From the NCBI GenBank assembly GCA_016844935.1, contig JAERTK010000027.1, positions 1-63,397 of the forward strand: a stretch of 63,397 nt of DNA, given 5' to 3'. Within the stretch, counting starts at the first letter, position 1; each line of letters begins with the position of its first letter. Position numbers and translations under genes: made by a program. Source of the DNA: Desulfobacteraceae bacterium. GTDB taxonomy: Bacteria; Desulfobacterota; DSM-4660; Desulfatiglandales; Desulfatiglandaceae. This document shows, in pieces, positions 4,132 to 21,696 of this stretch. The notes beneath the pieces were generated by a model. It made no database searches. It was not told the DNA's origin and saw only the letters and a program-made list of their open reading frames with translations.

Positions 4132-5673
4132 ATGCTTAAGCAAAACAAGATCAACAATGCCTTCAGTAACGCCGAGAAAATGCCTTTGAATCTGGCCATC
4201 GTAGGGGGAGGGCGAACCTGCAAATTCTTTTTGGAACTTCTGGAGGACAACGGTTTCCCTTTTCTGGATATCAGATTGGTGGGTGTTTGCGATATAGACC
4301 CCGAAGCCGTCGGGTTTAAGCTGGCAAAAGAGATGGGGATCTACACCACTGACAACCTCACAGACCTTCTTGCCATCAAGGATTTAAACTTCGTTATTGA
4401 GTTAACCATGAGTAAAGAGATCCTGCTGGAACTCTTACGTCTCCGGCCGCAAGGGGTCGGGGTGCTGGAACACAACGTCAGCAAATTGTTGCGGCATCTG
4501 TTTGACATGGATCAGAAGTTAAAATCAACAGAACAGCAGGCCGAAGTTGATAAAGTGATCTCAGATTTTTTATTGCAGCATACCAATGAAAGGGTCCTGC
4601 TCATACGGCCTGATTTCGTCATTGTTGACGCCAATGAATCCTACCTTGATGCGGCACCCAAATCTGGAAATGAGGTGATAGGGGCCCACTGTTATGAAGT
4701 CAGCCATGGGCTCAAGTCCCCTTGTCACATTTCACAGCCAAACCTGGGATGCCCCCTGATGGAAACGCTGCAAACCGGTAAGTCCGCTCAGTCCATCCAT
4801 GAACATATCATCAAGGGAGGTGAAGTAACCTATTGTGACATGGTTACCTACCCGGTCAAGGACCTCGGCGGCGAAATCAAGATGGTCATTGAGGTGTGGA
4901 GAGATATCACTGAAGAGGTTTCGACAAAATTGGAAAGACGGTCCGCGGCATTAAAAAACGATCTCAACAAACTGATCCAGGAAGATCGAATGATTTCCCT
5001 GGGGAAACTGGTGGCTACCAGCGTTCACGAGATCAACAACCCCATCCAGGGCCTATTGACTTTCAGCCACCTCATGCAGGGGATTTTGAAAGAAGGCGAG
5101 CCAGGCCCGGATGATCTGAAGAAATTCCAGGGTTTTCTCTCCATCATGAGCGAAGAACTGGAACGGTGCGGTGACATTGTCTCCGGACTCCTCTCATTCT
5201 CCCGTGAGAGCGTTACGGAATTTAAGGATGTTGACATCAATGAGATACTAGAGCAGGTCCTCAGGCTGACCCAACACAGGATGGAACTCCAGAACATCGG
5301 ATTGAATACCGGATTATCCCCCGTTCCACTGATAACCCGCGGGGACATAAACCAGCTCCAGCAATGTTTTCTAAATCTGATCTTCAATGCCATTGAAGCC
5401 ATGCCGGAAGGGGGGCAACTGAATCTGGACGCACATCCTGACACTTCCCGTGAGGATGCCCTGATAACCATTCAAGATACAGGGCTCGGGATAGCCAAGA
5501 AAAATCTGGATCATATATTTGATCCCTTTTTCACTACCAAGGAGACTGGAGAGGGCACGGGCCTGGGATTGTCAATTGTGTACGGGGTGGTGAAGGCCCA
5601 CGGAGGAAACATCAAAGTCGATAGCCAGGTGGGAAAGGGGACCATTTTCAGCTTGAGTTTCCCGATTCAGTAA
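4132..5673 (+). CDS. Histidine kinase with N-terminal Rossmann-like domain and Cys-rich PAS domain
   Basis: 513 residues. Residues about 16-130 read as a nucleotide-binding Rossmann-like fold (LAIVGGGRTCKFF, then VGVCDIDPEAVG and VIELTMS), of the kind found at the start of homoserine-dehydrogenase or Gfo/Idh-type oxidoreductases. A PAS domain follows (about 145-270) with the cysteine pattern CYEVSHGLKSPC...GCPL, then HisKA with the phospho-accepting H299 in HEINNP and a HATPase (N box NAIEAMPEGG, G boxes DTGLGIA and GTGLGLS). No membrane segment is seen, so it should sense an internal signal, plausibly NAD(H) or redox state (inference). Starts 2 nt after the upstream activator and ends 20 nt before the NtrC-type regulator, its likely partner. 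Confidence 0.88.
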   Translation: MLKQNKINNAFSNAEKMPLNLAIVGGGRTCKFFLELLEDNGFPFLDIRLVGVCDIDPEAVGFKLAKEMGIYTTDNLTDLLAIKDLNFVIELTMSKEILLELLRLRPQGVGVLEHNVSKLLRHLFDMDQKLKSTEQQAEVDKVISDFLLQHTNERVLLIRPDFVIVDANESYLDAAPKSGNEVIGAHCYEVSHGLKSPCHISQPNLGCPLMETLQTGKSAQSIHEHIIKGGEVTYCDMVTYPVKDLGGEIKMVIEVWRDITEEVSTKLERRSAALKNDLNKLIQEDRMISLGKLVATSVHEINNPIQGLLTFSHLMQGILKEGEPGPDDLKKFQGFLSIMSEELERCGDIVSGLLSFSRESVTEFKDVDINEILEQVLRLTQHRMELQNIGLNTGLSPVPLITRGDINQLQQCFLNLIFNAIEAMPEGGQLNLDAHPDTSREDALITIQDTGLGIAKKNLDHIFDPFFTTKETGEGTGLGLSIVYGVVKAHGGNIKVDSQVGKGTIFSLSFPIQ

Positions 5674-5693: not shown

Positions 5694-7043
5694 ATGAACG
5701 AAAAAATGAGCATACTTATCGTGGACGACGAAAGGATTATCCGGGAATCCTTTTTCCACTGGTTTGAAAAATCGGGGCACATGGTGGACACGGCTGCTTC
5801 AGGCCCCGAGGCCCTGGAAAAATTAGAGAAGCTCCCTTTTGAACTCCTGTTCGTGGACATCAAGATGCCGGGAATGGATGGCATTGAGCTGTTGGGCCGG
5901 GTGAAAGAGGAATACCCTGACACCATTGTTATCATCATGACCGCATACGGGTCCATCGAGACGGCGGTGACCGCCATGAAACTGGGAGCCGGCGATTATC
6001 TGCTGAAACCTTTCAAACCGGATCAGCTCTCCCTGGTGATGGAAAAAGTCTTTCATCAGCATAGGCTCGCATCCGAATACCACTACCTTAAAGCACAGTT
6101 AGAGGAAAAAACCCGTTTTGATAATATCATCGGGCAGTCTCCCGCCATGGAGGATATTTTCAAAATCATCCCCGAGGTAGCAGTGAGTGAGTCTTCTGTC
6201 CTCATATTGGGAGAAACGGGTACCGGAAAAGAGTTGGTTGCAAAGGCGATCCATGCCAAGAGCAAACGATCCAACGGGCCTTTTATGGCCATTAACTGCG
6301 GCGCCATCCCGGACACCCTCCTAGAAAGTGAACTCTTCGGGCATCAAAAAGGGGCCTTTACGGGGGCTGTAAATCATCGGAAAGGGCTCCTGGAGGTTGT
6401 TTCGGGAGGGACTCTTTTCTTAGATGAAATCGGCGAAATAAGCCCGAAGATGCAGGTGGATCTATTGCGGGTGCTGGAAGAGAAGAAAATCACAAGGATC
6501 GGGGAGAGAGCGCCCATTGATGTGGACTTTCGGCTCATCTCTGCCACGAGGCGGGATCTGGAAAAGGAGGTGGCCGAAAGAGAATTCCGGGAAGACTTCT
6601 ATTATCGTGTGAACGTGATCATCATCCATATTCCCCCTTTACGAAAAAGAAGGGAGGATATTCCCCTGCTGGCCGAGCACTTTCTCCAGAAATACTGTCA
6701 TGAGACCGCCAAAAAGGTTGATCATATTTCCCGGGATGCCACAGCGCTCTTGAAGGACTATGACTGGCCCGGGAATGTGAGGGAGTTGGAGAATGCCATT
6801 GAACGGGCTGTGGTGCTCTCCAAGTCCAGGACCGTGGGGGTTCGGGATTTCTCTTTCCTCAATCCAGCATCATCCCCTGTTTCCGGGCAGCGCTCCCTCA
6901 GGGAGATGGAGAAAGAGTATATTCAGGAGATCTGGGCTGAATGCGGGTGGAACGTTACAAAAGCCTCCAGGATCCTGGACATAAACCGCGTAACCCTGCA
7001 TAAAATGATAAAACGATACGGGTTAAAAAGACCTGCTTCCTGA
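5694..7043 (+). CDS. NtrC-family sigma54-dependent response regulator
   Basis: 449 residues: receiver domain (acidic pair DDE, phospho-acceptor in FVDIKMPGMDG, switch Thr in MTAYGS, Lys in LLKPF), AAA+ domain (Walker A GETGTGKE, GAFTGA loop, FLDEIGE), and a Fis-type helix-turn-helix at the end (ASRILDINRVTLHKMIKRY). Good Shine-Dalgarno GGAGG upstream. It directly follows the Rossmann-PAS kinase, so the two form a two-component pair. The receiver is strikingly like the receiver domain embedded in the HdrA-type protein at 15205-18648, for example DIKMPGM and MTAY..(V/I)ETAV.AMK.GA.DYL.KPF, which suggests one kinase could address both. Confidence 0.93.
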   Translation: MNEKMSILIVDDERIIRESFFHWFEKSGHMVDTAASGPEALEKLEKLPFELLFVDIKMPGMDGIELLGRVKEEYPDTIVIIMTAYGSIETAVTAMKLGAGDYLLKPFKPDQLSLVMEKVFHQHRLASEYHYLKAQLEEKTRFDNIIGQSPAMEDIFKIIPEVAVSESSVLILGETGTGKELVAKAIHAKSKRSNGPFMAINCGAIPDTLLESELFGHQKGAFTGAVNHRKGLLEVVSGGTLFLDEIGEISPKMQVDLLRVLEEKKITRIGERAPIDVDFRLISATRRDLEKEVAEREFREDFYYRVNVIIIHIPPLRKRREDIPLLAEHFLQKYCHETAKKVDHISRDATALLKDYDWPGNVRELENAIERAVVLSKSRTVGVRDFSFLNPASSPVSGQRSLREMEKEYIQEIWAECGWNVTKASRILDINRVTLHKMIKRYGLKRPAS

Positions 7044-8601: not shown

Positions 8602-8653
8602 GAAATTTACCGACCCTCCCTCTGAAAGTTGTCTCTCCGTAACTGTTGACCCA

Positions 8654-8977: not shown

Positions 8978-8994
8978 AGCAACGGGCGTGCCAA
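8978..8994 (-). promoter_or_regulatory. Sigma54 (-24/-12) promoter for the Cys-cluster/GcvH-like unit
   Basis: Minus strand reads TTGGCAC-N5-TTGCT, an exact match to the RpoN consensus with GG-N10-GC spacing. Transcription would begin near 8966, 88 nt before the ATG at 8878. Confidence 0.8.
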
Positions 8995-9487: not shown

Positions 9488-9503
9488 TGGCACAATAAAT
9501 GCT
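9488..9503 (+). promoter_or_regulatory. Sigma54 (-24/-12) promoter for the receiver protein and Hdr operon
   Basis: TGGCAC-N5-ATGCT with GG (9489-9490) and GC (9501-9502) ten bases apart, one mismatch from consensus. The predicted start of transcription near 9513 lies upstream of ATG 9532 but downstream of the in-frame ATG at 9499, which decides the start of the following gene. Confidence 0.68.
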
Positions 9504-9531
9504 GGTAGAGCCCGCAACGGGAGAACCAGGG

Positions 9532-9945
9532 ATGACCTCAAACGGCATGAAAAAGAAAAAGGTCCTGATCGTAGACGATGAGCTGGACATGAGGATCTTT
9601 CTTTCGACCCTGCTGGAGACAAACGGGTACAAACCCGTTGTGTCCACAGACGGGATGGAAGGGATCCGCAAGGCAAGAGAGATCAAGCCGGATCTAATTG
9701 TTTTAGATGTGATGATGCCAAAAGCGGGCGGCGTTCAAATGTACCGCGATTTGAGGGTGGACAGCGAACTCGAGGGTATCCCGGTCATTATGCTGTCCGG
9801 GATCGCCAAGAAAACCTTTTTTCACTCTCAAAACGTGCTTGATTCCTACATGGATCAATCTGTGCGTGAACCCGATGCATACATCGAGAAGCCGCCGGAA
9901 GCAGAAGAATTTCTTCAAAGCGTTCGAGGGTTATTGAACATGTGA
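9532..9945 (+). CDS. Single-domain response regulator (receiver only)
   Basis: 137 residues. The acidic pair (VDDE), phospho-acceptor Asp (LIVLDVMMPK) and switch residue (MLSGIA) are present. The conserved Lys region reads YIEKPPEAEEF. A stretch between the switch and the Lys (FFHSQNVLDSYMDQSVREPDA) is longer than in typical CheY-like proteins. There is no output domain. ATG 9532 is preferred over 9499 because the latter falls inside the sigma54 promoter and 9532 has GGGAGA upstream. It leads the Hdr operon 66 nt ahead of the first hdrA, so it may be a phosphate-relay partner for the system, alongside the receiver inside the second HdrA. Confidence 0.85.
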   Translation: MTSNGMKKKKVLIVDDELDMRIFLSTLLETNGYKPVVSTDGMEGIRKAREIKPDLIVLDVMMPKAGGVQMYRDLRVDSELEGIPVIMLSGIAKKTFFHSQNVLDSYMDQSVREPDAYIEKPPEAEEFLQSVRGLLNM

Positions 9946-10011: not shown

Positions 10012-13000
10012 ATGATGTCAAAAAGGATAGGGTTTTTTATTTGTCATTGCGGGGTCAATATAGCCGGTAAAGTCCGGGTTGAAGAGGTGTCTGAATTTGT
10101 CCGCGGACTTAAGAACGTCGTGGTGGCCAGAGATTACAAGTTCATGTGTTCGGATCCGGGCCAGGACATGATAGAGAAGGACATCACAGATCTTGACTTG
10201 AACCGCGTGGTGGTTGCCTCCTGCAGCCCAAGGCTTCATGAGAAGACATTTCAGAGCGTTTGCCAGCGGGCCGGCATCAACCCCTATTTTTTCCAGATGG
10301 CCTCCGTCCGGGAGCAGGTCTCCTGGGTGACCGAGGACCCGGATGAGGCCACCAATAAGGCAAAAACCCTGGCGGCAGCAGCCATCAACCGGGTCAACTT
10401 TCATCGGGGACTGGAGTCCAGAGAGGTGGATATCCACCCCGATGTTCTGGTGGTTGGAGCGGGCATTACCGGCATGCAGGCATCCCTCGACATCGCCCGT
10501 GCCGGGTACAAAGTCCATCTCGTGGAAAAACAGCCCTCCGTGGGGGGGCACATGCTCCAGTTTGACAAGACATTTCCTACCCTGGATTGCGCCGCATGTA
10601 TCGGGACGCCAACCATGGTAAACGTGGGGCAGGAATCGAACATTGACCTGCTCACCTATAGCGAAGTGGAAGAGGTGACAGGGTTCATCGGCAATTTTAA
10701 CGTGAAGATCCGGAAAAACGCCCGGTATGTAAAGGAGGGTGTATGTACGGGTTGTGGAGACTGCGCAAGTGTCTGCCCCGTTACAGAACTGAGCGAATGG
10801 GACGTGGGTCTTGCCAAGCGAAAAGCCATTTACAGGTCCTTTCCCCAGGCGGTGCCCATTACCTTTGCCGTTGAAAAAATGGACAGGGCCCCCTGCGGGA
10901 TCACCTGTCCAGCCGGAATAAATGTTCAGGGCTACGTCCAGCTTATCGGTCAAGGCAAATACAAAGAGGCGGTGGAGCTGATCATGGAAAGGCTCCCCTT
11001 GCCGGGGACATTGGGCCGGGTGTGCCCGCACGCCTGCGAGGCGGAGTGCAGGCGGCTTGAGGTGGATGAAGCCATATCCATCAGGGATCTGAAACGCTTT
11101 GCCGCCGACCAGGTGGACCTGAGCCAGTTGCCGCTGCCGGAGATCGAGGAGCGGGAAGAAAAGTTGGCAATCATCGGTTCTGGGCCGGTCGGATTGACCG
11201 CGGCATATTATCTGAGGCTCAAAGGGTACCCGGTAACGATTATTGAATCGCTTGCAGCCCTTGGCGGGATGCTGCGGGTGGGAATTCCCGATTATCGTTT
11301 ACCCCCCGAGGTGTTGGACAATGAGATCAACCACATCCTGAGATTGGGGGTTGAGTCCCGGACCGGCAAGGCCCTGGGGGTTGATTTTACCCTTCAAGAT
11401 CTGGAAAAGGAGGGTTTTAAGGCCGTTTTCCTGGGAACCGGCGCCCATGGCGGCATTAAGCTGAATGTCCCCGGGGAAGAGGAGTTTGAAGGTGTTTTGG
11501 ATGCGGTGGACTTCCTGAGGGAGACCAACCTGGGAGAACGCAAACTGCCCGGAAAAAGGGTGGTGGTCGTAGGCGGCGGCAACGTAGCCATTGACGCGGT
11601 CCGCATGGCGCGCCGGCTGGGCTCTGAAGAGGCCACCGTCGTTTACCGCCGGAGCCGCGAGGAGATGCCGGCCTATGAGGAAGAGGTCGAAGCGGCCCTG
11701 GCTGAAGGCATAATAATCCATTACCTCACGGCACCGGTGCGAATCCAGGGTGCCGAAGGAAGGGTTACAGGCTTTGAATGCATAAAAACCGAATTGGGAT
11801 CTCCCGATGCAAGCGGACGTAGACGCCCGGTGCCGGTAGAAGGTTCCGAGTTCGTGATCGAATGCGATGTGGTGATGATGGCCATAGGGCAGCGACCCCA
11901 GTTAGATTGGGCAGGGGATGAGGCAGGCTTGGAAATCTCCAGGTGGGGGACATACGAAGTAAATCCCCATACCATGCAGACGAGCATCCCCCACGTTTTT
12001 GCAGCCGGCGACGCAGTGACAGGCCCGGCAACGGTCATCGAAGCGGTGGCCGCCGGCCACAAGGCGGTGGAGGCCATTGATCGATATATTAACGGAGAGG
12101 ACCTTGGGGCTTATGCCGAAACATTAGAAGCCGTGGCGCCTCCGGGCCGGGACTGGCGGGAAATCCCCGAAGGCCTCGAAAAGGAGGACCGTGCCCATCC
12201 GACGTTCAGGGACCCAGAGGAGAGCGCCGCTTCCTTCGAACAAGTGGATCTTGGGTTTAGCGAAGATGAAGCGCAAAGGGAAGCTTTGCGTTGCCTCAAC
12301 TGCGGGCTCTGCTCGGAGTGCATGGCCTGTGTGGGCGCCTGTGAGGCCAAAGCCATCGACCACACCATGGAAGATGAGGCATTGGACGTAAAGATCGGCA
12401 GTATTATTTTGGCAACGGGATATGATCTTCTCGACCCCACACCCATGAAGCAGTTCGGCTACGGTTCCTTCCCCAATGTTTTTACCAGCCTCGAGTTCGA
12501 ACGCCTCAACAATGCCACTGGCCCCACAAGCGGCCAGATCCTCATGAAGGATCAAACGGGCGAATTCACCACACCCCCGGAGAGCGTAGCCATTATCCAC
12601 TGTATCGGCAGCCGGGACGAAAACTACCATGAATACTGCTCAAGGGTCTGCTGTATGTACGCCCTCAAATATGGACATCTCCTGAAAGACAAGGTGGGAC
12701 ATCACGTTAAGATCTATGACTACTACATCGATATGCGCTGCTTCGGGAAAGGGTATGAGGAATTTTACAGAAGGTGCCAGGAAGAGGGGATCAACTTTGT
12801 TAGAGGAAAGCCTGCTGAAATCACGGATCAGGCACTGGCCCCCGACGAAGAGGGTAAGCTGATCGTCATCGGAGAAGACACATTAATCGGAAAACGCTAC
12901 AGGAACCCCGTTGATATGGTGATCCTTTGTGCTGCCATGGAAGCCCGTGAGGATGCCAAAGATGTTGGCAGGATTTTCGGCGTCAACCAGGGGGCCGATG

Positions 13001-13425
13001 GGTTCTTCCTGGAAGAACACCCGAAATTAGGCCCACTGGATACTGCCACGGACGGGGTGTTCATCGCCGGGGCCTGTCAGGGGCCAAAAGACATCCCGGA
13101 TGCTGTTTCACAAGCGTCAGGAGCGGCCGCCAAGGCCCTGCAGCTGGCCAGCCGTGGAACGGTGGAGGTCTCTTCCACCATTAGCTGGATTGATCCTGAC
13201 GTATGCTCCGGCTGCCAGGCCTGCATCGGCCTGTGTGCCTATTCCGCCATTGAATTTGACGAACGGAGAGGGATCTCTGTAATCAACGAAGCCTTGTGCA
13301 AAGGATGCGGAAGTTGTTCGGGGCACTGTCCAAGCGGGGCTGCACAGGTCAGGCATTTCAATGAGAAACAGATCTTCGCGGAATTAGATGGCATCATGGA
13401 CGCTATTGCTGCGGTAGCGGCTTAG
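10012..13425 (+). CDS. hdrA: HdrA-type flavin/iron-sulfur protein with inserted GltD/NfnB-like NAD(P)H domain
   Basis: 1137 residues, against about 650 for plain HdrA. The order is: N-terminal HdrA domain (FFICHCGVNIAG, ASCSPRLHE), FAD site VVGAGITGMQAS (about 146-157), LDCAACI, ferredoxin motif CTGCGDCASVCP near 245, then at about 290-710 a GltD-like domain with its own cysteines (CGITCPAGI, CPHACEAECRR), FAD fold IIGSGPVGLTAA (about 387) and NAD(P) fold VVVVGGGNVAID (about 518). HdrA resumes with CLNCGLCSECMACVGAC (about 761), SIILATGYDLLDP, CIGSRDENYHEYCSRVCC, and ends in two [4Fe-4S] motifs near 1063-1110. So it carries two flavins plus a pyridine-nucleotide site and is probably the entry point for NAD(P)H in an electron-bifurcating complex (inference). 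Start supported by GAGG eight nt upstream. Confidence 0.92.
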   Translation: MMSKRIGFFICHCGVNIAGKVRVEEVSEFVRGLKNVVVARDYKFMCSDPGQDMIEKDITDLDLNRVVVASCSPRLHEKTFQSVCQRAGINPYFFQMASVREQVSWVTEDPDEATNKAKTLAAAAINRVNFHRGLESREVDIHPDVLVVGAGITGMQASLDIARAGYKVHLVEKQPSVGGHMLQFDKTFPTLDCAACIGTPTMVNVGQESNIDLLTYSEVEEVTGFIGNFNVKIRKNARYVKEGVCTGCGDCASVCPVTELSEWDVGLAKRKAIYRSFPQAVPITFAVEKMDRAPCGITCPAGINVQGYVQLIGQGKYKEAVELIMERLPLPGTLGRVCPHACEAECRRLEVDEAISIRDLKRFAADQVDLSQLPLPEIEEREEKLAIIGSGPVGLTAAYYLRLKGYPVTIIESLAALGGMLRVGIPDYRLPPEVLDNEINHILRLGVESRTGKALGVDFTLQDLEKEGFKAVFLGTGAHGGIKLNVPGEEEFEGVLDAVDFLRETNLGERKLPGKRVVVVGGGNVAIDAVRMARRLGSEEATVVYRRSREEMPAYEEEVEAALAEGIIIHYLTAPVRIQGAEGRVTGFECIKTELGSPDASGRRRPVPVEGSEFVIECDVVMMAIGQRPQLDWAGDEAGLEISRWGTYEVNPHTMQTSIPHVFAAGDAVTGPATVIEAVAAGHKAVEAIDRYINGEDLGAYAETLEAVAPPGRDWREIPEGLEKEDRAHPTFRDPEESAASFEQVDLGFSEDEAQREALRCLNCGLCSECMACVGACEAKAIDHTMEDEALDVKIGSIILATGYDLLDPTPMKQFGYGSFPNVFTSLEFERLNNATGPTSGQILMKDQTGEFTTPPESVAIIHCIGSRDENYHEYCSRVCCMYALKYGHLLKDKVGHHVKIYDYYIDMRCFGKGYEEFYRRCQEEGINFVRGKPAEITDQALAPDEEGKLIVIGEDTLIGKRYRNPVDMVILCAAMEAREDAKDVGRIFGVNQGADGFFLEEHPKLGPLDTATDGVFIAGACQGPKDIPDAVSQASGAAAKALQLASRGTVEVSSTISWIDPDVCSGCQACIGLCAYSAIEFDERRGISVINEALCKGCGSCSGHCPSGAAQVRHFNEKQIFAELDGIMDAIAAVAA

Positions 13426-13487: not shown

Positions 13488-13910
13488 ATGGCAGGATACG
13501 AACCAACAATCATCGCTTTTGTATGCAACTGGTGCACTTACACAGCGGCGGATCTGGCAGGGACGTCGAGACTGGCCTATCCCCCCAACGTGCGTATGAT
13601 CAGAATGATGTGCACAGGGATGGTAGATCCAAAATATGTCATCAAGGCACTTCTGGAAGGGGCGGATGCCGTACTCATCAGCGGCTGTCACCCGGGAGAC
13701 TGCCATTACATCAATGGTAACTTCAAAGCCCGGCGGCGTGTGAAACTGCTGAAAGAAATCCTCCCCCGTTTTGGGTTTGACGAACGCCGCTTAAAACTGA
13801 CTTGGATAGGCGCCAGCGAGGGGGTGGACTTTGCCAAAACCATGCGTGAGATGGCGGAGGAGATGAAAGAACTGGGGCCCACCGAAGTCAGGAACCAGAT
13901 GGTGCTCTGA
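13488..13910 (+). CDS. mvhD: MvhD-like [2Fe-2S] electron-transfer subunit (Cys form)
   Basis: 140 residues. In methanogens MvhD links hydrogenase to HdrA; here no hydrogenase is nearby, so it would link another donor to HdrA. Cluster ligands are visible as FVCNWC (13, 16), C42 and SGCHPGDCHY (67, 72). Strong AAGGAGG before the ATG. Its paralog at 22000 has an in-frame UGA exactly where this protein has Cys67. It lies 62 nt after hdrA and before the FrhB-like subunit. Confidence 0.92.
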   Translation: MAGYEPTIIAFVCNWCTYTAADLAGTSRLAYPPNVRMIRMMCTGMVDPKYVIKALLEGADAVLISGCHPGDCHYINGNFKARRRVKLLKEILPRFGFDERRLKLTWIGASEGVDFAKTMREMAEEMKELGPTEVRNQMVL

Positions 13911-13998
13911 TTTTCCACTTTTGGTTTGCGGATTTGAGATTTATAAAGAATATGGCAAAATAAGCGATTAACGATGATTTCTGTTGTGGAGGAGACGA

Positions 13999-15144
13999 AT
14001 GGCTAAAACAGCGAAGATAGATGTCAAAGAACAGAACCTCCTTATTTCTCTACAGGGCTTTTTCAAAGCACTTCTTGAGAAAGGGGGTATAGAGGCCGTT
14101 CTGGTTCCCCAGCATCTCCCAATGAAAAACTCGGTGATGCCCACCCTGGTGACGGATCCCGAAAAGATTGACGACGTCGATCCCCTGGCGCCTGTATTTC
14201 CCATGAATGCTGCCAAGATCGTTTCGAAACTCACCAGAAGGCCTTTGGATGGACAAATCGCCGTGGTCCTGCGGCCATGTGAGATTCGGGCGTTTATTGA
14301 ATTGGTAAAACTCAAACAAGGGAGAACCGATGAAGTGGTGCTCATCAGCATGGACTGTTACGGCGCTTACGGCAATGTGGACTATGGCCGTTTTGCAGGC
14401 GATGACGGTGTAGATGCCTCTTTGAGGTTTTACGAAAACATCATCTCCGGGAAGGGAACCGCCTGGGAAGACATTGATATTTCTCCGGCCTGCAAAGCGT
14501 GCGACCAGCCGGTATCGGAAAATGCCGACCTTCAGATCGGAACCCTGGGCGTAGATACCAAAGATCAACTTCTGCTAAAAGCCCTGACCTTTTCGGGTGA
14601 AACGCTGCTGGAAAAACTGGCTCTGCCTGAAACCCCGGAACCGGAAAACCGGCAGACAGCCATTGAAACGCTGGTTTCAGACCGCATCGCTTACCGGGAC
14701 AAGATCTTTGACGAGACCAGTGAGGCCACATCCGACCTCAATAAGCTCACGACCTATCTCGGCAGTTGCATCAACTGCTACAACTGCCGGGTGGCCTGCC
14801 CGGTCTGTTACTGCAAGGAATGTGTATTTTCAACCGATGTCTTTGACCATGAGCCGACCCAGTATTTGAACTGGGCCAAACGCAAAGGCATCATCAAAAT
14901 GCCCACGGACACGGTCTTTTACCACATCACCCGTTTGGCCCATATGAGTACGTCATGCATCGGCTGCGGCCAGTGTTCAAATGCGTGCCCCAATGACATT
15001 CCGGTCATGGAGATTTTCAGGACGGTGGCCAACTATACCCAAAAGGCATTTGACTACCAGGCCGGACGCAGCCTGGATGACGAGATGCCCCTGTCGGTAT
15101 TTAGAGAAAAGGAGCTTTCAGAGCTCACCGGTGGAAAAGATTAA
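13999..15144 (+). CDS. FrhB/FdhB-like iron-sulfur subunit (4Fe-4S dicluster protein)
   Basis: 381 residues. The first half has LRPCEIRAFIELVKLKQG, seen in the FrhB/FdhB family (coenzyme F420 hydrogenase or formate dehydrogenase beta subunit). The second half has CINCYNCRVACPVCYCKEC near residue 257 and CIGCGQCSNACP near residue 319, giving at least two clusters. The start at 13999 is set by GGAGGAG. The protein is a distant paralog of the one at 22431, sharing ACP(V/L)CYC and the ferredoxin tail. Between MvhD and the second HdrA it probably conducts electrons. There is no formate dehydrogenase catalytic subunit in the window. Confidence 0.82.
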   Translation: MAKTAKIDVKEQNLLISLQGFFKALLEKGGIEAVLVPQHLPMKNSVMPTLVTDPEKIDDVDPLAPVFPMNAAKIVSKLTRRPLDGQIAVVLRPCEIRAFIELVKLKQGRTDEVVLISMDCYGAYGNVDYGRFAGDDGVDASLRFYENIISGKGTAWEDIDISPACKACDQPVSENADLQIGTLGVDTKDQLLLKALTFSGETLLEKLALPETPEPENRQTAIETLVSDRIAYRDKIFDETSEATSDLNKLTTYLGSCINCYNCRVACPVCYCKECVFSTDVFDHEPTQYLNWAKRKGIIKMPTDTVFYHITRLAHMSTSCIGCGQCSNACPNDIPVMEIFRTVANYTQKAFDYQAGRSLDDEMPLSVFREKELSELTGGKD

Positions 15145-15204: not shown

Positions 15205-18200
15205 ATGAAAAAAAAGATCGGCTCAGGTCTGGTGGTAGGAGCGGGAATAAGCGGCATTCGTTCGGCCCTGGATCTGGCAGAAGTTGGCTACCACGTGACA
15301 CTCATCGACAAGGCCCCCAACCTGGGTGGAACCCTGGCCCAGTTGGATTACCAGTTCCCAAACAATCACTGCGGTATGTGCAAGATGCTTCCCCTGGTGG
15401 AGCGGGACCTATCTTCACAGTTCTGCCTCCGCAAAGGCCTCTTTCATGAAAATATTGATATCATGCTCTCGGCCGAGTTAGTGGCATTGGAAGGTGAGCC
15501 AGGCAGTTTTGAGGCGACCCTTCGTCAAAACCCAACCCTGGTTGACGCCCAACGCTGCATCGGCTGTGGGGAATGCGTAAACGTTTGTCCGGTAGAGGTC
15601 CCTGACCAGTTCAATGCAGGTCTTACCACGAGAAAGGCCGTGTATCTGCCGGTACCTCACAATATCCCCAATACGTATGTGGTGGACATGGCATCGTGCA
15701 CCATGTGTGGGGAATGCGAGAAAGTCTGCCCCACCAACGCCATCGATTTTGGCAAAGAGGCGCGTGGGAAATTCCGCATCCTGGTGGTGGATGATGAATT
15801 TGTTGTGCGCGATTCTCTAAAGGAATGGCTGACGGATGAGGGTTTCCAGGTTCATATGGCCGAATCGGGCACGGAAGCGCTGGAAACATTAGCGAAGGAA
15901 ACGTTTCATCTGATGCTTCTGGATATCAAGATGCCCGGCATGGGCGGGGTGGAAGTCCTCAAACGGTCAAAGGAACTCCGGCCCGAACTTCCGGTGGTCA
16001 TGATGACCGCTTATGCCACTGTGGAGACGGCAGTGGAAGCCATGAAGACCGGGGCCCTTGATTATCTGATGAAACCTTTTGATCCGGACACCCTGGTCCC
16101 GTTGATCATTCAGCTTCATCAAAGCATTATCGGCGCCGGCGAACACCAGATAACCGTGGGTTCCGTGATCCTGTCGGCCGGATTTGATTCCTTTGACCCA
16201 TCCACCGGAAAAAACACCTATGAATACGGCCAGTTCCCCAACGTGGTCACCAGTATTGAGTTCGAACGGTTGATGAGCGGGACCGGCCCGAATCCGGGAA
16301 AGCTTTTGCGGCCCGGTGACGGCAAAGAGATCCGGAAAATCGCCTGGTTCCAGTGTGCGGGCTCACGGGACCAGCAGGCTGATGCCGACTTTTGCTCGTC
16401 TGCATGTTGCATGTTCTCCATCAAGGAGGCCCTCTTAACAAAGGAAAAGACCGAGGGCCGGGTGGAGACATCCATTTTCTATATGGATATGCGCACATTC
16501 GGGAAGGATTTTCAACGCTATCGGGATACGGCTGAACAGGAACACGGGGTTCGCTTTATCAGAAACCGGGTCCATTCCGTTCAAATTCCGGAAACAGAAG
16601 GAGACCTGAAGGTCGCCTACGCAGACATAAACGGCGCCATACATGAAGAGGATTTTGATCTTGTCGTACTTGCCGTCGGCCAGAGACCTCCTTCAATGAC
16701 AGAGGATCTGGCGGAAATAACCGGGGTTGATATTAACCCCTGGGGGTTCTGCCAGGCCGATGGTTTTTCCCTTAGTCGCACCAGACAGGATGGCGTACTG
16801 CTGGGCGGGTCCTTTTCCGGCCTGAGGGATATCTCTGAGTCGGTTATTCAATCAAGTTCCGCCGCATTTTCCGCATCACAACTGATCCATTCAAAGGGCG
16901 GCGGCCTGTCCGAAGAGCCAGGGGCCCAAACAGCGTTTCGGGATGTCTCAAAAGAGCTCCCCAGGGTTTTGGCGGTGTTGTGTGCTTGTGGCGGCGTACT
17001 GGAGGAAGCGGCGGATCTGGATGCATTGGCGGAATGGATCAAGACCCGGGGTTCCGTAAGCCAAGTCCATACCATCGACTCCATATGCACCCGGGAAGGC
17101 TGGGATGAACTGAAGGGAACCCTTCAGGAAAGCGATGCAAACAGGGTACTGATCGCCGGTTGCATGCCCTATGTATATTCTAAGAAATTAGCGGAACTGG
17201 GCAGGGATACGGGGCTCGATCCGACCCTGATAGAGGTGGTGGATATTCGGACTCCGGTGTTTCCGGACCGGGACAGGGAAAAAGAAGACGTTATCCAGGA
17301 AGTCCGGGGAGTGATCTCCATGGGAATCGCAAAGGTAAAGGGGATGGACCCGGAGCTTGTACCCTCCACCCAGATCATTCCAAAAGCCCTGGTGGTTGGG
17401 GGAGGGATCGCGGGAATGAGCGCGGCCCTCGGGATCGCCGACCACGGTTATGAGGTAAGTCTGGTGGAACAGGGCAAGGGATTAGGGGGAAACCTCCATC
17501 ACATACACCGAACCATTCAAGGAGATTCTCCGCAGAAACTTCTGGAAGAAACCGTCCAAAGAGTGGAACAACACCCAAAGATCCAACTTTATACCCAGGC
17601 GAAGGTGGTCCTTTCGCGGGGTCATGTGGGCCATTTTGCAACAGCCATTGAAAAAGAAGACGGCGTGGGTGAAACCATAGAACACGGGGTGACCCTGCTG
17701 GCCACCGGCGGCTCAGAAGCCAATACCAAAAGCTATGCCTACGGGGAAGCCGAATCCATCCTGACCCAGCATGAGCTGGAGGGGAAATTGGCGGACCAAA
17801 CGGTAGACCCATCAGGTCTTAGCGCCGTGGCCATGATCCAGTGCGTGGATTCCAGAGAAGAGCCGCGAAATTATTGCAGCCGGATATGCTGCGCCACGGC
17901 CTTGAAAAATGCCCTGTACCTGAAGGATCAAAATCCCGAGATTGACGTTTACATCTTCTACAGGGACATCATGAGCTACGGTTTCTTAGAAAGTTACTAT
18001 ACCCAAGCCCGAAAAGGCGGGGTAATTTTCATACAATACGACAAGAACCAGAAGCCCCAGGTCAGTGTGGAAAACGGAAAGCCCCGTATTATTGCAGATG
18101 ATCCTATCCTCGGCCGAAAATTAGGAATAAACGCAGACCTCCTGGTCTTAAGCACAGGCGTTGCCCCGGCAGCGGCCGGGCAGCTTGCCGATCTTTTCGG

Positions 18201-18648
18201 GGTTGAGGCGAACCAGGACGGTTTTTTTCAGGAGGCCGATTCCAAGTGGCGCCCTGTGGACTTCATAAAGGAAGGGGTCTTTATGGCTGGGATTGCCCAC
18301 TCGCCCTGTTCCATCAACGAGGCCATAGCCATGGCCGAGGCGGCGGCCCAGCGTTCTCTGAGGATCCTTAACAGTGAGCGCCTGGCCTCTGGGCGAATCG
18401 TGGCCGAGGTGCGTCAAACCCTTTGCGCCCTGTGCGAGAGATGCATTACTGCCTGCGCTTACGGGGCTCGCTCCTATGATGAAGAACAGGAGCTGATCGC
18501 AGTGGATCAATTGATGTGCCAGGGATGTGGCTCGTGTGCCACAGTCTGTCCCAACAGCGCCTCGGTACTCCGGGGCAACCGGGATCAACAGCTTTTTGAA
18601 GTGATTGATGCCGCACTTGAGAACATTTTCGCAAACGCAACACTTTAA
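15205..18648 (+). CDS. Double HdrA/Qmo-like protein with a response-regulator receiver domain embedded in the first HdrA unit
   Basis: 1147 residues. The first HdrA unit has FAD fold LVVGAGISGIRSA at the N-terminus, NHCGMCKMLP, and ferredoxin motifs CIGCGECVNVCP (about 118) and CTMCGECEKVCP (about 167). It is then interrupted at residues 190-310 by a complete CheY-like receiver: D196/D197, phospho-acceptor D240 in LLDIKMPGMGG, T268 and K290. HdrA resumes at VGSVILSAGFDSFDP (about 318) and CAGSRDQQADADFCSSACC. The second unit begins with an HdrA N-terminal-like stretch (VLCACGG, about 591), then FAD fold LVVGGGIAGMSAA (about 729), CVDSREEPRNYCSRICC, and two C-terminal ferredoxin motifs (1074-1120). 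The reading frame is continuous through both junctions, and the receiver replaces only the short linker after the ferredoxin. All phosphorylation residues are kept, so phosphorylation could directly gate electron flow (inference). Confidence 0.93.
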   Translation: MKKKIGSGLVVGAGISGIRSALDLAEVGYHVTLIDKAPNLGGTLAQLDYQFPNNHCGMCKMLPLVERDLSSQFCLRKGLFHENIDIMLSAELVALEGEPGSFEATLRQNPTLVDAQRCIGCGECVNVCPVEVPDQFNAGLTTRKAVYLPVPHNIPNTYVVDMASCTMCGECEKVCPTNAIDFGKEARGKFRILVVDDEFVVRDSLKEWLTDEGFQVHMAESGTEALETLAKETFHLMLLDIKMPGMGGVEVLKRSKELRPELPVVMMTAYATVETAVEAMKTGALDYLMKPFDPDTLVPLIIQLHQSIIGAGEHQITVGSVILSAGFDSFDPSTGKNTYEYGQFPNVVTSIEFERLMSGTGPNPGKLLRPGDGKEIRKIAWFQCAGSRDQQADADFCSSACCMFSIKEALLTKEKTEGRVETSIFYMDMRTFGKDFQRYRDTAEQEHGVRFIRNRVHSVQIPETEGDLKVAYADINGAIHEEDFDLVVLAVGQRPPSMTEDLAEITGVDINPWGFCQADGFSLSRTRQDGVLLGGSFSGLRDISESVIQSSSAAFSASQLIHSKGGGLSEEPGAQTAFRDVSKELPRVLAVLCACGGVLEEAADLDALAEWIKTRGSVSQVHTIDSICTREGWDELKGTLQESDANRVLIAGCMPYVYSKKLAELGRDTGLDPTLIEVVDIRTPVFPDRDREKEDVIQEVRGVISMGIAKVKGMDPELVPSTQIIPKALVVGGGIAGMSAALGIADHGYEVSLVEQGKGLGGNLHHIHRTIQGDSPQKLLEETVQRVEQHPKIQLYTQAKVVLSRGHVGHFATAIEKEDGVGETIEHGVTLLATGGSEANTKSYAYGEAESILTQHELEGKLADQTVDPSGLSAVAMIQCVDSREEPRNYCSRICCATALKNALYLKDQNPEIDVYIFYRDIMSYGFLESYYTQARKGGVIFIQYDKNQKPQVSVENGKPRIIADDPILGRKLGINADLLVLSTGVAPAAAGQLADLFGVEANQDGFFQEADSKWRPVDFIKEGVFMAGIAHSPCSINEAIAMAEAAAQRSLRILNSERLASGRIVAEVRQTLCALCERCITACAYGARSYDEEQELIAVDQLMCQGCGSCATVCPNSASVLRGNRDQQLFEVIDAALENIFANATL

Positions 18649-18691: not shown

Positions 18692-19261
18692 ATGAGCGAA
18701 AAACAAGCTGATCTTGCCTTACACGAGGCTGAGCCTGATATCCTCGCCTCTGTTCAGGAAAAGGTGCAGGCGTGCATGCAGTGCGGCACCTGTAGCGGGT
18801 CTTGCGCCAATTCTTTTGCCATGGACCTCACCCCGCGTCACTTGTGGCGTCTGGCCCAGTTAGGGGACACCGAGGAGATTTTCAGCAGCAAGACCTTCTA
18901 TCTCTGCTCTGCCTGTTATTATTGCACCCTGCGCTGCCCTCGGGGGCTTCCGCTCACAGAGACCATGGGCGCCCTCAAACGGCTGGCAGCAGACCAGGGG
19001 ATAAAGAAGTACAAGAACAGCGCCAATTTTTACCGGACCTTCATGGAAACAGTGCGGCGCTACGGGCGGGTCAGGGAGATGGAATTCATTAATCGATATT
19101 TTTTCTCCCTGAAAAATCCCATCCTTCCTCTCGGCTTCACCTCTTTGGGCCTGAAACTCATGAAAAAAGGAAAGATTTCGCCACAACCGCCCAAGCTTTT
19201 CGGAGAAGGAAGATTTGACCGGCTCTATCGAAAAGTCGAAGAACTGGAGGCGAAATCATGA
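18692..19261 (+). CDS. hdrC: Heterodisulfide reductase subunit C-like protein
   Basis: 189 residues. Two [4Fe-4S] motifs, CMQCGTCSGSC (near residue 28) and CSACYYCTLRCP (near residue 71), are as in HdrC, which conducts electrons from HdrA to the catalytic HdrB. The stop overlaps the hdrB start (ATGA), indicating translational coupling. GGGAGAG precedes the ATG. Confidence 0.93.
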   Translation: MSEKQADLALHEAEPDILASVQEKVQACMQCGTCSGSCANSFAMDLTPRHLWRLAQLGDTEEIFSSKTFYLCSACYYCTLRCPRGLPLTETMGALKRLAADQGIKKYKNSANFYRTFMETVRRYGRVREMEFINRYFFSLKNPILPLGFTSLGLKLMKKGKISPQPPKLFGEGRFDRLYRKVEELEAKS

Positions 19262-20127
19262 AATATATCTACTACCCCGGTTGCTCTCTGGAAGGGACCG
19301 CAGCGGAATACAATGCGTCAACCCTAGCCACCATGAAAGCTTTAGGAGCGGAATTGACCGAACTGGAAGATTGGACCTGTTGCGGCGCCAGTGCGGCCGA
19401 TGCCACCAGTTATCTTCTCTCCATGGTCCTGGCTGCCCGTAACCTGGCTTTGGCCGAAGGAATGGATGGTGAGGCCGACATCATGGTCCCCTGCAGCGCC
19501 TGTTACCTAAATCTCAGAAAGGTTGAAGACCATGTCCAACAGGATGCGGGGCTTTCTGATAAGATAAATGAGGCCCTCAAAGAGGAAGGACTGGCGTACA
19601 GGGGGGGCATCAAAGTCCGGCATTTCCTGGATGTGGTCGTTAATGATTTTGACCCTGAGGCCATCGGGCGGATGGTAAAAAACAGACTTGAGGGGCAAAG
19701 GATTGCAATTTATTATGGGTGTCAGGCATTGCGCCCCTATGCCACGTACGATGACCCGGAACAGCCCCGTTCTTTAGAGCCTCTCATACAAGCCCTCGGG
19801 GCTGAGGTCCACCCCTGGACAGCGGGGGCCAAATGTTGTGGCGCGGCATTGATGACCACCAAGAAAGACGCGGCAATGGAGCTCACCGGCGGCATCCTTA
19901 AGGCAGCCAAAGGGGCCGATTGCATCGTGACCCTTTGTCCCATGTGCGAAATGAACTTAGAAGCCTTCCAGAAACCTGTTTCCAAAGCCCTGGAAGAGGA
20001 TCTTGAAATCCCTGTTCTCTATCTTCCCCAACTCCTGGGCGCGGCACTGGGTCTTTCGGGGGAAGATCTCAAATTAAACCTCAATCTTGCCCTGCCGGAT
20101 TCTTTTAAGGAGAGGCTCATTAGCTGA
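19258..20127 (+). CDS. hdrB: Heterodisulfide reductase subunit B-like protein (CCG domains)
   Basis: 289 residues with two cysteine-rich CCG modules: YPGCSLEG...WTCCGAS...PCSACYLN, and YYGCQALRP...KCCGAALM...CPMCEMN. In methanogens such modules bind two non-cubane [4Fe-4S] clusters that reduce CoM-S-S-CoB. In sulfate reducers the substrate is unknown; a DsrC-type trisulfide, a thiol disulfide or another sulfur carrier are candidates. Start overlaps the hdrC stop. Last gene of the operon; a convergent kinase gene ends 16 nt further on. Confidence 0.93.
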   Translation: MKYIYYPGCSLEGTAAEYNASTLATMKALGAELTELEDWTCCGASAADATSYLLSMVLAARNLALAEGMDGEADIMVPCSACYLNLRKVEDHVQQDAGLSDKINEALKEEGLAYRGGIKVRHFLDVVVNDFDPEAIGRMVKNRLEGQRIAIYYGCQALRPYATYDDPEQPRSLEPLIQALGAEVHPWTAGAKCCGAALMTTKKDAAMELTGGILKAAKGADCIVTLCPMCEMNLEAFQKPVSKALEEDLEIPVLYLPQLLGAALGLSGEDLKLNLNLALPDSFKERLIS

Positions 20128-20142
20128 GGGAAATCAAAATCC

Positions 20143-21696
20143 CTATCCCTTTACCGGTATCTTTATGGTAAAAACCGCGCCTTTTCCTGCTTCGCTCTGC
20201 ACCGCAATGGTCCCCTTGTGCCGGTCAATAATGCCGTAGACCGTTGAAAGGCCCAGGCCTAACCCTTTTCCTTCTATTTTGGTGGTGAAGAAAGGATCGA
20301 AGATATTGGGCAGATCTTCTTTCGAAATGCCACACCCGTTATCCTCGACGCTTACTTCCACCACATTCATTTTAGGGTCATGGGAACTCACAATGGTCAG
20401 TGTTCCACCTTCCGGCATGGCATCAATGGCATTGAAGATCAGATTGATAATACATTGCTGAATCTGGCTTAAGTCACCCCAGAGTTTTGGAATATCCGCC
20501 CCAAAACCTTTCGCGATCTTGATATTCTGCAGCGTCAGTTTGTGCTGGCTCAGCATAATGCATTTTTCGAGCAGGTCATTAATGGCCATCTCCCCTGACG
20601 CCATTTTGGATTTTCGGGAAAATGCCAACAGGTTAGAGACGATTTTAGCGCAACGATCGGTTTCGCGCTCCACGAGACTGAGATAGCCCTGGAATTTCTC
20701 TGACTGCTCCTGTTCAAACACGCCCCTTTTGAGGATCTTTATCATTAGACGCGCGTAATTCAAAATGCCCGCAAGGGGATTATTGATCTCGTGCACGACA
20801 CTGGCTGCTAACCGGCCTAAGGATATCATTTTATCCTGGTGAAGGAGTCGGGTCTGATCAGCAAACTGCTGTTCCATCTTCCTGATCTCTCTCAGGTCCC
20901 TGATGAAGCACACCATCCCGATCTCTTCTAATCCTTCTTTCAGAACCGTTGCGGAGAGCTGGGCGGGAATTTTCATTCCGTTCTTAGGAAGCAGGTTTGT
21001 TTCAAAGAGAAAAAGCCGATTTTTCCCCCCGTATGCATCAGAATGCAATTCTTTTCTGAACTGTTCTGCTGCGCCCACCGGATAGAATTCATTGAGGTGC
21101 ATTTTCCCAACCACTTCACCCTTGGGGTAACCTGACATCTTTTCCATGGCCCTGTTGAACGTGACGATCTTATCATCCCTGTCACACCCCATAATCCCAT
21201 CAATGGAACTCTCAATGAGGTTTTTCTGGAAATCGAAGGTCCTTGCCAACTCCTCTGCCGTATCCATCCACCTCTCTTCAATAATGGCAGTGTAGTTGTT
21301 CAACGCTTTCCGGTCTGTATACCGCTTTTTAGCCCTTTCCAGGGCAACCAGGAGGGCTTCATTTTCGATCGGTTTTGTGACAAAATCAGAGGCATCTGAC
21401 TGAAGCGCTCGAATGGCGAGTTCCATATCTCCGAATCCGGTGACGACGATTACCTCTTTGTCAGGGTCATACGCTTTAACCCTTTTGAGGACCTCGATTC
21501 CGCCTATACCGGGCATCAAAATATCGGTGATAACGATTTGAGGGGACTCCTCTTTAAACAACCGGAGGCCACTTTCACCATCCGCGGCCGTCACTATTTG
21601 ATAGCCTTCATCCGCCAATACAATTGAAACCACACTGCGGATAGCTTCTTCGTCATCAATCAGCAGTATTTTCCAGTGTTCTTTCTTCAGAAGCAT
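20143..21696 (-). CDS. Hybrid sensor protein: receiver-PAS-histidine kinase
   Basis: 517 residues. N-terminal receiver (LLIDDEEAIR, phospho-acceptor in VITDILMPGIGG, VTGF, TKP), a PAS domain at about 160-285, then HisKA with SVVHEINNPLAG and a HATPase (NAIDAMPEGG, DNGCGIS, GLGLGLSTVYG). There are no membrane segments. Receiver-first kinases usually take a phosphate from another kinase or act as relays. It sits between the Hdr and Flx operons on the opposite strand, so it is a candidate partner for the receiver embedded in HdrA (inference from position). Confidence 0.9.
   Translation of the reverse strand: MLLKKEHWKILLIDDEEAIRSVVSIVLADEGYQIVTAADGESGLRLFKEESPQIVITDILMPGIGGIEVLKRVKAYDPDKEVIVVTGFGDMELAIRALQSDASDFVTKPIENEALLVALERAKKRYTDRKALNNYTAIIEERWMDTAEELARTFDFQKNLIESSIDGIMGCDRDDKIVTFNRAMEKMSGYPKGEVVGKMHLNEFYPVGAAEQFRKELHSDAYGGKNRLFLFETNLLPKNGMKIPAQLSATVLKEGLEEIGMVCFIRDLREIRKMEQQFADQTRLLHQDKMISLGRLAASVVHEINNPLAGILNYARLMIKILKRGVFEQEQSEKFQGYLSLVERETDRCAKIVSNLLAFSRKSKMASGEMAINDLLEKCIMLSQHKLTLQNIKIAKGFGADIPKLWGDLSQIQQCIINLIFNAIDAMPEGGTLTIVSSHDPKMNVVEVSVEDNGCGISKEDLPNIFDPFFTTKIEGKGLGLGLSTVYGIIDRHKGTIAVQSEAGKGAVFTIKIPVKG

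What the first reader, a model, noticed from the sequence alone, without database searches (positions are those of the whole stretch)
15205..18648. Complete response-regulator receiver domain embedded inside a double HdrA
Residues 190-310 of a 1147-residue HdrA/Qmo-like protein form a full CheY-like receiver with D196/D197, D240, T268 and K290, placed between the second ferredoxin motif and the rest of the flavin domain, where ordinary HdrA has only a short linker. The frame is uninterrupted on both sides and the receiver resembles that of the NtrC-type protein at 5694. Inference: phosphorylation could switch electron flow in an electron-bifurcating enzyme directly, a post-translational link between two-component signalling and core redox metabolism that I do not know to be described.
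Basis: partly seen in the sequence, partly recalled or inferred. Interest (0 to 1): 0.95.

Follow-up and report, generated by a model that had tools for sequence, protein, structure and literature searches.

The report
Receiver switch inside electron-bifurcating HdrA enzyme
This HdrA-like redox protein carries a complete response-regulator receiver domain between its ferredoxin module and its flavin module, intact copies in the sampled genomes come together with one particular histidine kinase, and that kinase is therefore predicted to switch core electron flow directly.

Summary
ORF 15205-18648 encodes a tandem HdrA-like protein with an intact NtrC-type receiver (Pfam E 5.6e-32) where ordinary HdrA has about 6 residues. 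It is neither a chimera nor a one-off: all 120 listed relatives of the first database search have the receiver, and its five key residues are unchanged in 117 of those 120 and in 70 of 80 genome-contig loci. The receiver is as conserved as the ferredoxin module, both connections keep exact lengths in 77 of 77 aligned relatives, and the predicted structure (pTM 0.87) shows a normal receiver in an HdrA core. The gene lies in a conserved operon (HdrL-MvhD-FrhB-like-HdrA-HdrC-HdrB).

The strongest new evidence is a partner. Close relatives of the hybrid kinase encoded next door (20143-21696) occur in 13 of 395 sampled phylum genomes: all 12 with an intact fused receiver, none of 3 with a decayed one, and one whose hdrA is cut by a contig gap over the receiver. 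Kinase and receiver trees look parallel. The same receiver type also sits in Usp-receiver-Usp proteins.

Phosphorylation and its effect on electron flow are inferred, not shown. Searches of an open-access library found no description; subscription papers were not searched.

The parts
15205..18648 (+). Tandem HdrA-like protein with embedded receiver, 1147 aa
15226..15534 (+). First FAD domain, part 1 (residues 8-110)
15535..15759 (+). Inserted ferredoxin module, two CX2CX2CX3C motifs (residues 111-185)
   Evidence: all eight cysteines present in 120 of 120 database relatives; in the 80 loci in all that are not gapped there (74 for the first motif, 77 for the second)
15772..16119 (+). Receiver domain (residues 190-305): D196/D197 acid pair, D240 predicted phosphorylation site (nt 15922-15924), T268, K290
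16147..16890 (+). First FAD domain, part 2 (residues 315-562)
16954..17370 (+). HdrA N-terminal-type domain of the second half (residues 584-722)
   Evidence: aligned to 5odc 2 onward
17371..18378 (+). Second FAD domain without inserted ferredoxin (residues 723-1058)
   Evidence: Pyr_redox_2 728-840; 6tjr_A 726-1057
18379..18615 (+). C-terminal ferredoxin (residues 1059-1137)
   Evidence: Fer4_21/Fer4_10
10012..13425 (+). HdrL-type protein: HdrA core with a GltD/NfnB-like NAD(P)H domain inserted at the equivalent site
   Evidence: flanking HdrA matches 1476 nt apart; upstream ortholog in 51 of 53 loci with room
13488..13910 (+). MvhD/FlpD-like electron-transfer subunit
   Evidence: PF02662 E 7.6e-54; 52 of 53 loci
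13984..15144 (+). FrhB/FdhB-like iron-sulfur protein
   Evidence: PF04432 and Fer4; 52 of 53 loci
18692..19261 (+). HdrC-like subunit
   Evidence: TIGR03290 E 7e-21, below its cut-off
19258..20127 (+). HdrB-like subunit (CCG domains)
   Evidence: PF02754; TIGR03288 E 3.6e-54, below its cut-off
20143..21696 (-). Hybrid kinase (receiver-PAS-HisKA-HATPase), predicted soluble, predicted cognate kinase
   Evidence: HEINNP box at 302
4132..5673 (+). Kinase with an N-terminal NAD(P)-type Rossmann domain (predicted), PAS, HisKA, HATPase
5694..7043 (+). NtrC-type regulator; nearest receiver relatives of the embedded one
9499..9945 (+). Stand-alone receiver upstream of HdrL
   Evidence: PF00072 E 4.1e-17; a relative (35% identity or more) in 27 of 80 loci

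Best explanation
The 1147-residue protein is a tandem HdrA-like flavoprotein whose inserted response-regulator receiver is likely phosphorylated at Asp240 by the co-occurring hybrid kinase encoded at 20143-21696, and this phosphorylation would gate electron exit through the adjacent ferredoxin module of a predicted NAD(P)H-linked Hdr complex. Shown here: the fusion, its recurrence, the conserved residue set, the fixed connections, the operon and the kinase co-occurrence. Predicted: a normal receiver fold with both ends joined directly to the ferredoxin and flavin modules. [quoted passage not shown] the inserted ferredoxin is the low-potential exit, as in archaeal HdrA; phosphorylation shifts the alpha4-beta5-alpha5 side of the receiver, whose last helix runs straight into the flavin domain, and so re-positions the ferredoxin module. 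The sign of the effect (opening or closing) cannot be read from sequence. A Usp-receiver-Usp protein in some relatives would be a second target of the same kinase.
For: Receiver residues unchanged in 117 of 120 database relatives and 70 of 80 loci and in 11 of the 14 other fused genomes of an even phylum sample. Mean identity to the window's protein: receiver 72%, inserted ferredoxin 71%, first FAD domain 77% and 62% for its two parts, second FAD domain 62%, C-terminal ferredoxin 65%, N-terminal domain 43%. C175-D196 is 21 residues and K290-V318 is 28 in 77 of 77 although residues 306-314 are only 30% identical. AlphaFold2: pLDDT 88.2, pTM 0.87; helix 294-310 is followed by strand 312-318. Close kinase relatives (51% identity or more, 448 bits or more; next best 378 bits, 40%) in 13 of 395 genomes: 12 of 12 intact, 0 of 3 decayed, plus G232, whose gene is split at a contig gap over the receiver; Fisher 5e-22, counting G232 against the idea. 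In 7 of the 12 the kinase is on another contig, so neighbourhood alone does not explain it. Kinase tree and receiver tree look parallel by eye: hybrid-kinase group with HdrA/Usp receivers, HK1 group with NtrC receivers. Literature passages: the inserted ferredoxin-like domain is the anticipated electron exit and arm movements seem to gate transfer in archaeal Hdr (PMC12350162).
Against: No phosphorylation, enzyme or redox data. Fixed lengths are also seen at two of the four other inter-domain joints examined. Genomes related by descent are not independent, so the Fisher value overstates certainty; the 51%/448-bit line was drawn after seeing the gap in the table, and only 3 candidates per genome were scored. 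In the fetched flanks a hybrid-kinase relative is seen in only 21 of 80 loci. One lineage keeps the domain after losing part of the residue set, so the domain has some use without it. The model is an unphosphorylated single chain without cofactors, and its coordinates could not be inspected, so no contact was measured. The published mobile arm is the N- and C-terminal part of HdrA with the donor subunits, not the inserted ferredoxin itself. That the complex bifurcates at all is inferred from homology.
Confidence: 0.5

Rival explanations
1. Phosphorylation controls docking or assembly rather than electron flow inside the chain: phospho-receiver recruits or releases a partner (ferredoxin, a second complex, or the Usp-receiver-Usp protein), like CheY-type docking.
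For: Stand-alone receivers bind partners on the same face (established for CheY-like proteins; recalled). Usp-receiver-Usp proteins with 62-68% identical receivers lie near a relative of the kinase in L019, L041, L048 and L076; receivers could pair with one another. Fits all conservation data.
Against: The domain is inserted with both ends fixed in length, which docking would not need; a terminal tag would do.
Confidence: 0.2
2. Information flows the other way: the redox state of the HdrA core alters the receiver's phosphorylation or its hold on the kinase, so that HdrA is a sensor or phosphate sink that tunes the NtrC regulator or the Usp protein.
For: Two related kinases and an NtrC regulator lie next to the operon; receivers as phosphate sinks are established knowledge (recalled). 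HdrA would be well placed to report the electron supply.
Against: The receiver tree separates HdrA receivers from NtrC receivers (97/94 and 99/91) and the kinase cores split likewise, which suggests insulated pairs.
Confidence: 0.15
3. The receiver is a structural insert or dimerisation module whose phospho-chemistry is not used.
For: Loci titled Desulfovibrio, Desulfovibrionaceae or Desulfomicrobium (L047, L052, L060, L068, L077; L052 and L077 encode the same protein) keep the domain with a decayed residue set; so do three genomes of one family (L104-L106). The Asp at 240 itself is kept in L047, L068 and L104-L106 and lost in L052/L077 and L060; what all of them have lost is part of the acid pair, and all but L047 the Thr.
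Against: Elsewhere the residue set is nearly invariant, and its decay goes with absence of the kinase: 0 of 3 decayed genomes have it.
Confidence: 0.12
4. Assembly chimera or a misread frame.
For: None found; the genome has 7.35% estimated contamination.
Against: Same arrangement on many independent contigs and in a record named Desulfatirhabdium butyrativorans.
Confidence: 0.005

Closest known systems
HdrA of methanogen HdrABC complexes (PDB 5odc, 8rvu/8rvy/8rwn, 7bkb-7bke)
   Same: FAD domain, inserted ferredoxin with two cluster motifs, C-terminal ferredoxin and N-terminal domain all align
   Different: Two HdrA cores in one chain, each lacking some domains; receiver inserted between inserted ferredoxin and flavin domain; scores below the curated HdrA cut-offs
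HdrL of Desulfobacterium autotrophicum and ANME-1 HdrA with an NfnB-like insertion (passages of PMC2702500; PMC9012536)
   Same: A foreign domain in an HdrA-type chain; in ANME-1 it interrupts the inserted ferredoxin, and the window's own HdrL has its insertion at the site equivalent to the receiver's
   Different: There the insert is an NAD(P)H-handling domain, here a signalling receiver
NtrC-family response regulators
   Same: Receiver sequence and complete residue set; nearest group in the tree
   Different: No AAA or DNA-binding output; the output is a redox protein
FlxABCD-HdrABC of sulfate reducers (named in passages of PMC10553843)
   Same: MvhD-like subunit and HdrA, HdrB, HdrC genes together; NADH-linked by analogy
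   Different: NAD(P)H input here appears to be HdrL; I did not identify FlxA or FlxC, and the HdrA is doubled with a receiver
Enzyme-output response regulators such as CheB or PleD (recalled)
   Same: Receiver controlling a catalytic domain in the same chain
   Different: Receiver sits inside, not at the end of, a core redox protein; no such output was found in the searches listed

Membership tests
HdrA (heterodisulfide reductase subunit A) | FAD-type Rossmann motif and HdrA flavin core | tested here: met
HdrA (heterodisulfide reductase subunit A) | Inserted and C-terminal ferredoxin modules | tested here: met
   Motifs at 118, 165, 1074, 1105; inserted one only in the first half, C-terminal one only in the second
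HdrA (heterodisulfide reductase subunit A) | Curated NCBIfam HdrA cut-offs | tested here: not met
   NF040770 689.5 of 1100, NF041891 532.9 of 1300, NF041778 520.6 of 1400 bits; filed here as HdrA-like, not HdrA
HdrA (heterodisulfide reductase subunit A) | Flavin-based electron bifurcation | not testable with these tools
   needs enzyme assays
Response-regulator receiver (PF00072) | Pfam gathering score | tested here: met
   110.6 of 30.2 bits
Response-regulator receiver (PF00072) | Acid pair, phospho-Asp, Thr/Ser, Lys | tested here: met
   D196, D197, D240, T268, K290
Response-regulator receiver (PF00072) | Five-fold beta-alpha fold | tested here: met
Response-regulator receiver (PF00072) | Phosphotransfer from a histidine kinase | not testable with these tools
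   co-occurrence only
FlxABCD-HdrABC complex | FlxA, FlxB, FlxC, FlxD with HdrA, HdrB, HdrC | tested here: inconclusive
   MvhD/FlxD-like, FrhB-like, HdrA-, HdrB-, HdrC-like genes found; FlxA and FlxC not sought with their own models

The most novel reading that the evidence does not exclude
A dedicated soluble histidine kinase switches flavin-based electron bifurcation directly: it phosphorylates a receiver built into the joint between the flavin and the ferredoxin exit of HdrA, making a core energy-conserving enzyme the output of a two-component system, with a Usp-receiver-Usp protein as a second output and an NAD(H)-sensing sister kinase beside it.
Probability: 0.45. Interest if true: 0.93.

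Novelty: new variant of a known kind. Interest (0 to 1): 0.83.

Why it matters
Electron bifurcation sets how much reduced ferredoxin an anaerobe can make, and control of it is usually sought in gene expression and thermodynamics (general knowledge). A receiver inside HdrA with its own kinase would allow fast control by phosphorylation, and gives a handle (D240, BeF3-, kinase deletion) to lock the enzyme in one state. An intact version is present in a record named Desulfatirhabdium butyrativorans, so it can be tested in a named species.

Tried and rejected
Rejected: assembly chimera (many independent contigs). Rejected: a chance or generally decayed domain. Considered and not kept as the partner: the HK1 kinase (4132-5673); its Rossmann domain type is in 96 of 395 genomes, 10 of the 15 fused ones, so it is not specific, whereas the hybrid kinase is. 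The stand-alone receiver at 9499 has no clear tie to the embedded one (very long branch). Sigma-54-like sites (pattern recalled) were not enriched in the window: 58 found, mean 67 in shuffles, so no promoter claim is made. Sigma-70-like and terminator-like sites also did not exceed chance. The Usp-receiver-Usp protein was full-length in only 1 of 395 phylum genomes at E 1e-50; in the other 5 genomes hit, the match is the HdrA receiver itself, so it is an accessory, not a constant partner. First-look limits: only 5, 4 and 3 candidates per genome were scored, so counts are lower bounds.

Dropped rows: L081-L088 (own genome) left out of the counts; L060 is missing from the receiver tree because its decayed receiver was not matched at E 1e-8; L065 was labelled 'other' there but is a truncated embedded receiver; L065, L069 and L075 count as incomplete because the alignment holds 75, 18 and 0 of 116 receiver columns. 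L052 and L077 encode identical proteins and were both counted. The kinase tree is a quick one without bootstrap, capped at 8 HK1, 14 hybrid, 26 other and 9 own rows (8, 14, 26 and 5 used, plus two of the window). The parallel between the two trees was judged by eye.

Papers: passages only of PMC2702500, PMC5109826, PMC4215793, PMC12350162, PMC9012536, PMC10553843, PMC4103992, PMC4046663, PMC3739170; of all others only search listings. Six of these ten searches paired Hdr or bifurcation terms with receiver or response-regulator terms; of the 15 papers listed I opened passages of 6. The review of HdrA modules by Appel and others (2021) is not held and was not read; it could describe this. One notebook entry says 8 of 12 kinases lie on other contigs; the recount is 7.
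Full report
What is there. The ORF at 15205-18648 (+) encodes 1147 aa without interruption. Pfam finds one Response_reg domain at 192-299 (E 5.6e-32) amid flavin and ferredoxin domains. HdrA of known structure aligns up to query 185 and again from query 317, with 6 residues between in 5odc against 131 here. At eight other HdrA-like genes of the same genome the flanking matches are 3-21 nt apart. The receiver is thus a clean insertion between the inserted ferredoxin and the re-entry of the flavin domain.

The protein is two HdrA cores in one chain. The first has the flavin domain, the inserted ferredoxin and the receiver; the second has the N-terminal domain, a flavin domain and the C-terminal ferredoxin. 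In archaeal HdrA, electrons enter by the C-terminal ferredoxin and leave for ferredoxin through the inserted one (passages of PMC9012536; PMC12350162). If that holds here (inference), the receiver sits at the exit.

Recurrence and selection. The first database search found 2297 proteins at E 1e-30 or better among 7997 scored candidates; only the best 120 are listed, and all 120 have the receiver (116 of 116 columns filled; PF00072 in the table). Whether the other 2177 have it was not seen. A second search from a distant member gave 1097 at E 1e-100, 120 listed, one named Desulfatirhabdium butyrativorans. A genome-contig scan gave 311 encoding stretches, of which the best 80 were kept. The residues D, D, D, T, K are unchanged in 117 of 120 proteins and 70 of 80 loci. 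Of the 10 others, three are cut within or before the receiver, five are titled Desulfovibrio, Desulfovibrionaceae or Desulfomicrobium and are decayed (two of them the same protein), and two (L032, L072) are single oddities. Decay means loss of part of the acid pair, usually of the Thr, and in some also of D240. In an even sample of 395 phylum genomes 15 have the fusion, the window's included, in ten families; of the other 14, 11 have the set unchanged and 3, all of one family, are decayed though they keep D240. Distribution is patchy: 5 of 41 close relatives including the window's own genome, and none of the four others of the same genus, two of which are under 90% complete.

The receiver is conserved like a working part: mean identity to the window's protein is 72%, against 71% for the inserted ferredoxin, 77% and 62% for the two parts of the first flavin domain, 62% for the second, 65% for the C-terminal ferredoxin and 43% for the N-terminal domain, over 77 aligned proteins that I chose for spread. 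The connections keep exact lengths in 77 of 77. Two of four other joints between domains do so as well, and the stretches inside the receiver are nearly fixed (D196-D240 44 residues in 70 of 77, D240-K290 50 in 76 of 77), so this shows tight packing rather than a unique feature. AlphaFold2 gives pLDDT 88.2 and pTM 0.87; the last receiver helix (294-310) is followed at once by a flavin-domain strand (312-318). The first half matches HdrA over 418 residues at 1.7 A and the receiver matches LuxO's at 1.0 A over 121. I could not inspect coordinates.

Operon. Where at least 5.2 kb upstream is held, HdrL is found in 51 of 53 loci, MvhD in 52 and the FrhB-like gene in 52; HdrC and HdrB follow in 42 of 65 with at least 1.8 kb downstream. 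HdrL itself carries a GltD/NfnB-like domain at the equivalent insertion site (flanking matches 1476 nt apart), so this joint accepted two quite different inserts: one for NAD(P)H, one for a signal. [quoted passage not shown]

The partner kinase. Embedded receivers form one supported group (97/94) that holds only HdrA receivers and those of Usp-receiver-Usp proteins; the receivers of the NtrC/HK1 pair are nearest to it (86/76, not starred). Kinase cores show a matching pattern: the hybrid-kinase group (94 by SH-aLRT), the HK1 group (98) and a further group (99) form one set (98). In the window's genome the hybrid kinase is the closest core to HK1 (47%, 236 bits; next 160 bits). In the 395 genomes, hits to the hybrid kinase fall into two classes: 448 bits or more (51% identity or more) and 378 or less (40% or less over the full length, up to 45% over shorter parts). 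The upper class is in 13 genomes: the 12 with an intact fused receiver, none of the 3 decayed, and G232. G232 has the same hdrA, but residues 1 to about 103 end one contig and residue about 317 starts another, so its receiver is unseen. In 7 of the 12 the kinase lies on a different contig. Families f1, f2, f8, f38 and f91 contain both genomes with the two genes and genomes with neither, which speaks against simple shared ancestry, although no formal correction was made. The Fisher value with G232 counted against is 5e-22. Within the fetched flanks a hybrid-kinase relative (45% identity or more) is seen in 21 of 80 loci.

A second target. In L019, L041, L048 and L076 a protein of 437-474 aa has a receiver 62-68% identical to the embedded one between two Usp domains (Pfam run on the L041 and L076 proteins), and a hybrid-kinase relative lies near it. 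The first helix, which is the usual kinase-contact face (recalled), reads almost the same in both.

Mechanism and its limits. I commit to: the hybrid kinase phosphorylates D240 and this gates the ferredoxin exit. The partner step is well supported by co-occurrence; the gating step rests on position, fixed connections and the reported conformational gating of archaeal Hdr, where the arm that moves is the N- and C-terminal part of HdrA with its donor subunits (passage). The decayed lineage tells that the domain can stay without its full residue set, and the three decayed genomes lack the kinase. Docking and reverse-signalling rivals fit much of the data.

Prior knowledge. Databases label such proteins 'response regulator', 'FAD-dependent oxidoreductase' or 'heterodisulfide reductase subunit A', so the fusion is visible to automatic annotation. 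Ten searches of an open-access library, six of them pairing Hdr or bifurcation with receiver terms (the others 37, 38, 42, 102), gave no paper in whose opened passages it is discussed; not every listed paper was opened, and subscription papers were not searched. Domain types are known; the combination, its constant site and its kinase are the new variant.

Noticed in passing
window 4132-5673: Histidine kinase with a predicted N-terminal NAD(P)-type Rossmann domain, a possible cytosolic NAD(H) sensor; the domain type is in 96 of 395 phylum genomes, and a second copy in the window's genome (C244) lies beside another Hdr cluster.
   Followed up: partly
L041:14995-16308, L048:14885-16309, L019:15166-16485, L076:14174-15493: Usp-receiver-Usp proteins whose receiver nests among the HdrA-embedded ones.
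   Followed up: partly
L103:2336-7010 (own genome, C282): A receiver-less double HdrA next to a stand-alone receiver gene and a kinase: the same parts unfused.
   Followed up: partly
own genome C282, C31, C332, C244: HdrA paralogs with one in-frame TGA in the stretch that matches the N-terminal half, possibly selenocysteine as reported for Desulfobacterium autotrophicum HdrA.
   Followed up: no
window 7660-8676 (-): GcvH-domain protein with a cysteine-rich N-terminal part, with relatives near the fused hdrA in several loci; by eye no clear lipoyl lysine.
   Followed up: no
L104-L106, L047, L052, L060, L068, L077: HdrA with decayed receivers; in L104-L106 genes similar to the first Usp domain of the Usp-receiver-Usp protein lie beside the Hdr genes.
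   Followed up: partly
upstream of HdrL in L007, L026, L027, L033, L035, L059, L066: A 761-785 aa protein with HdrC similarity lies before HdrL where separate HdrC and HdrB genes were not seen downstream, perhaps a fused replacement; also in L044 and L054, whose contigs end in hdrA.
   Followed up: no
window 8979-8993 (-) and 9488-9502 (+): Sigma-54-like sites (exact and one mismatch; consensus recalled) near the stand-alone receiver start; not above chance overall.
   Followed up: no
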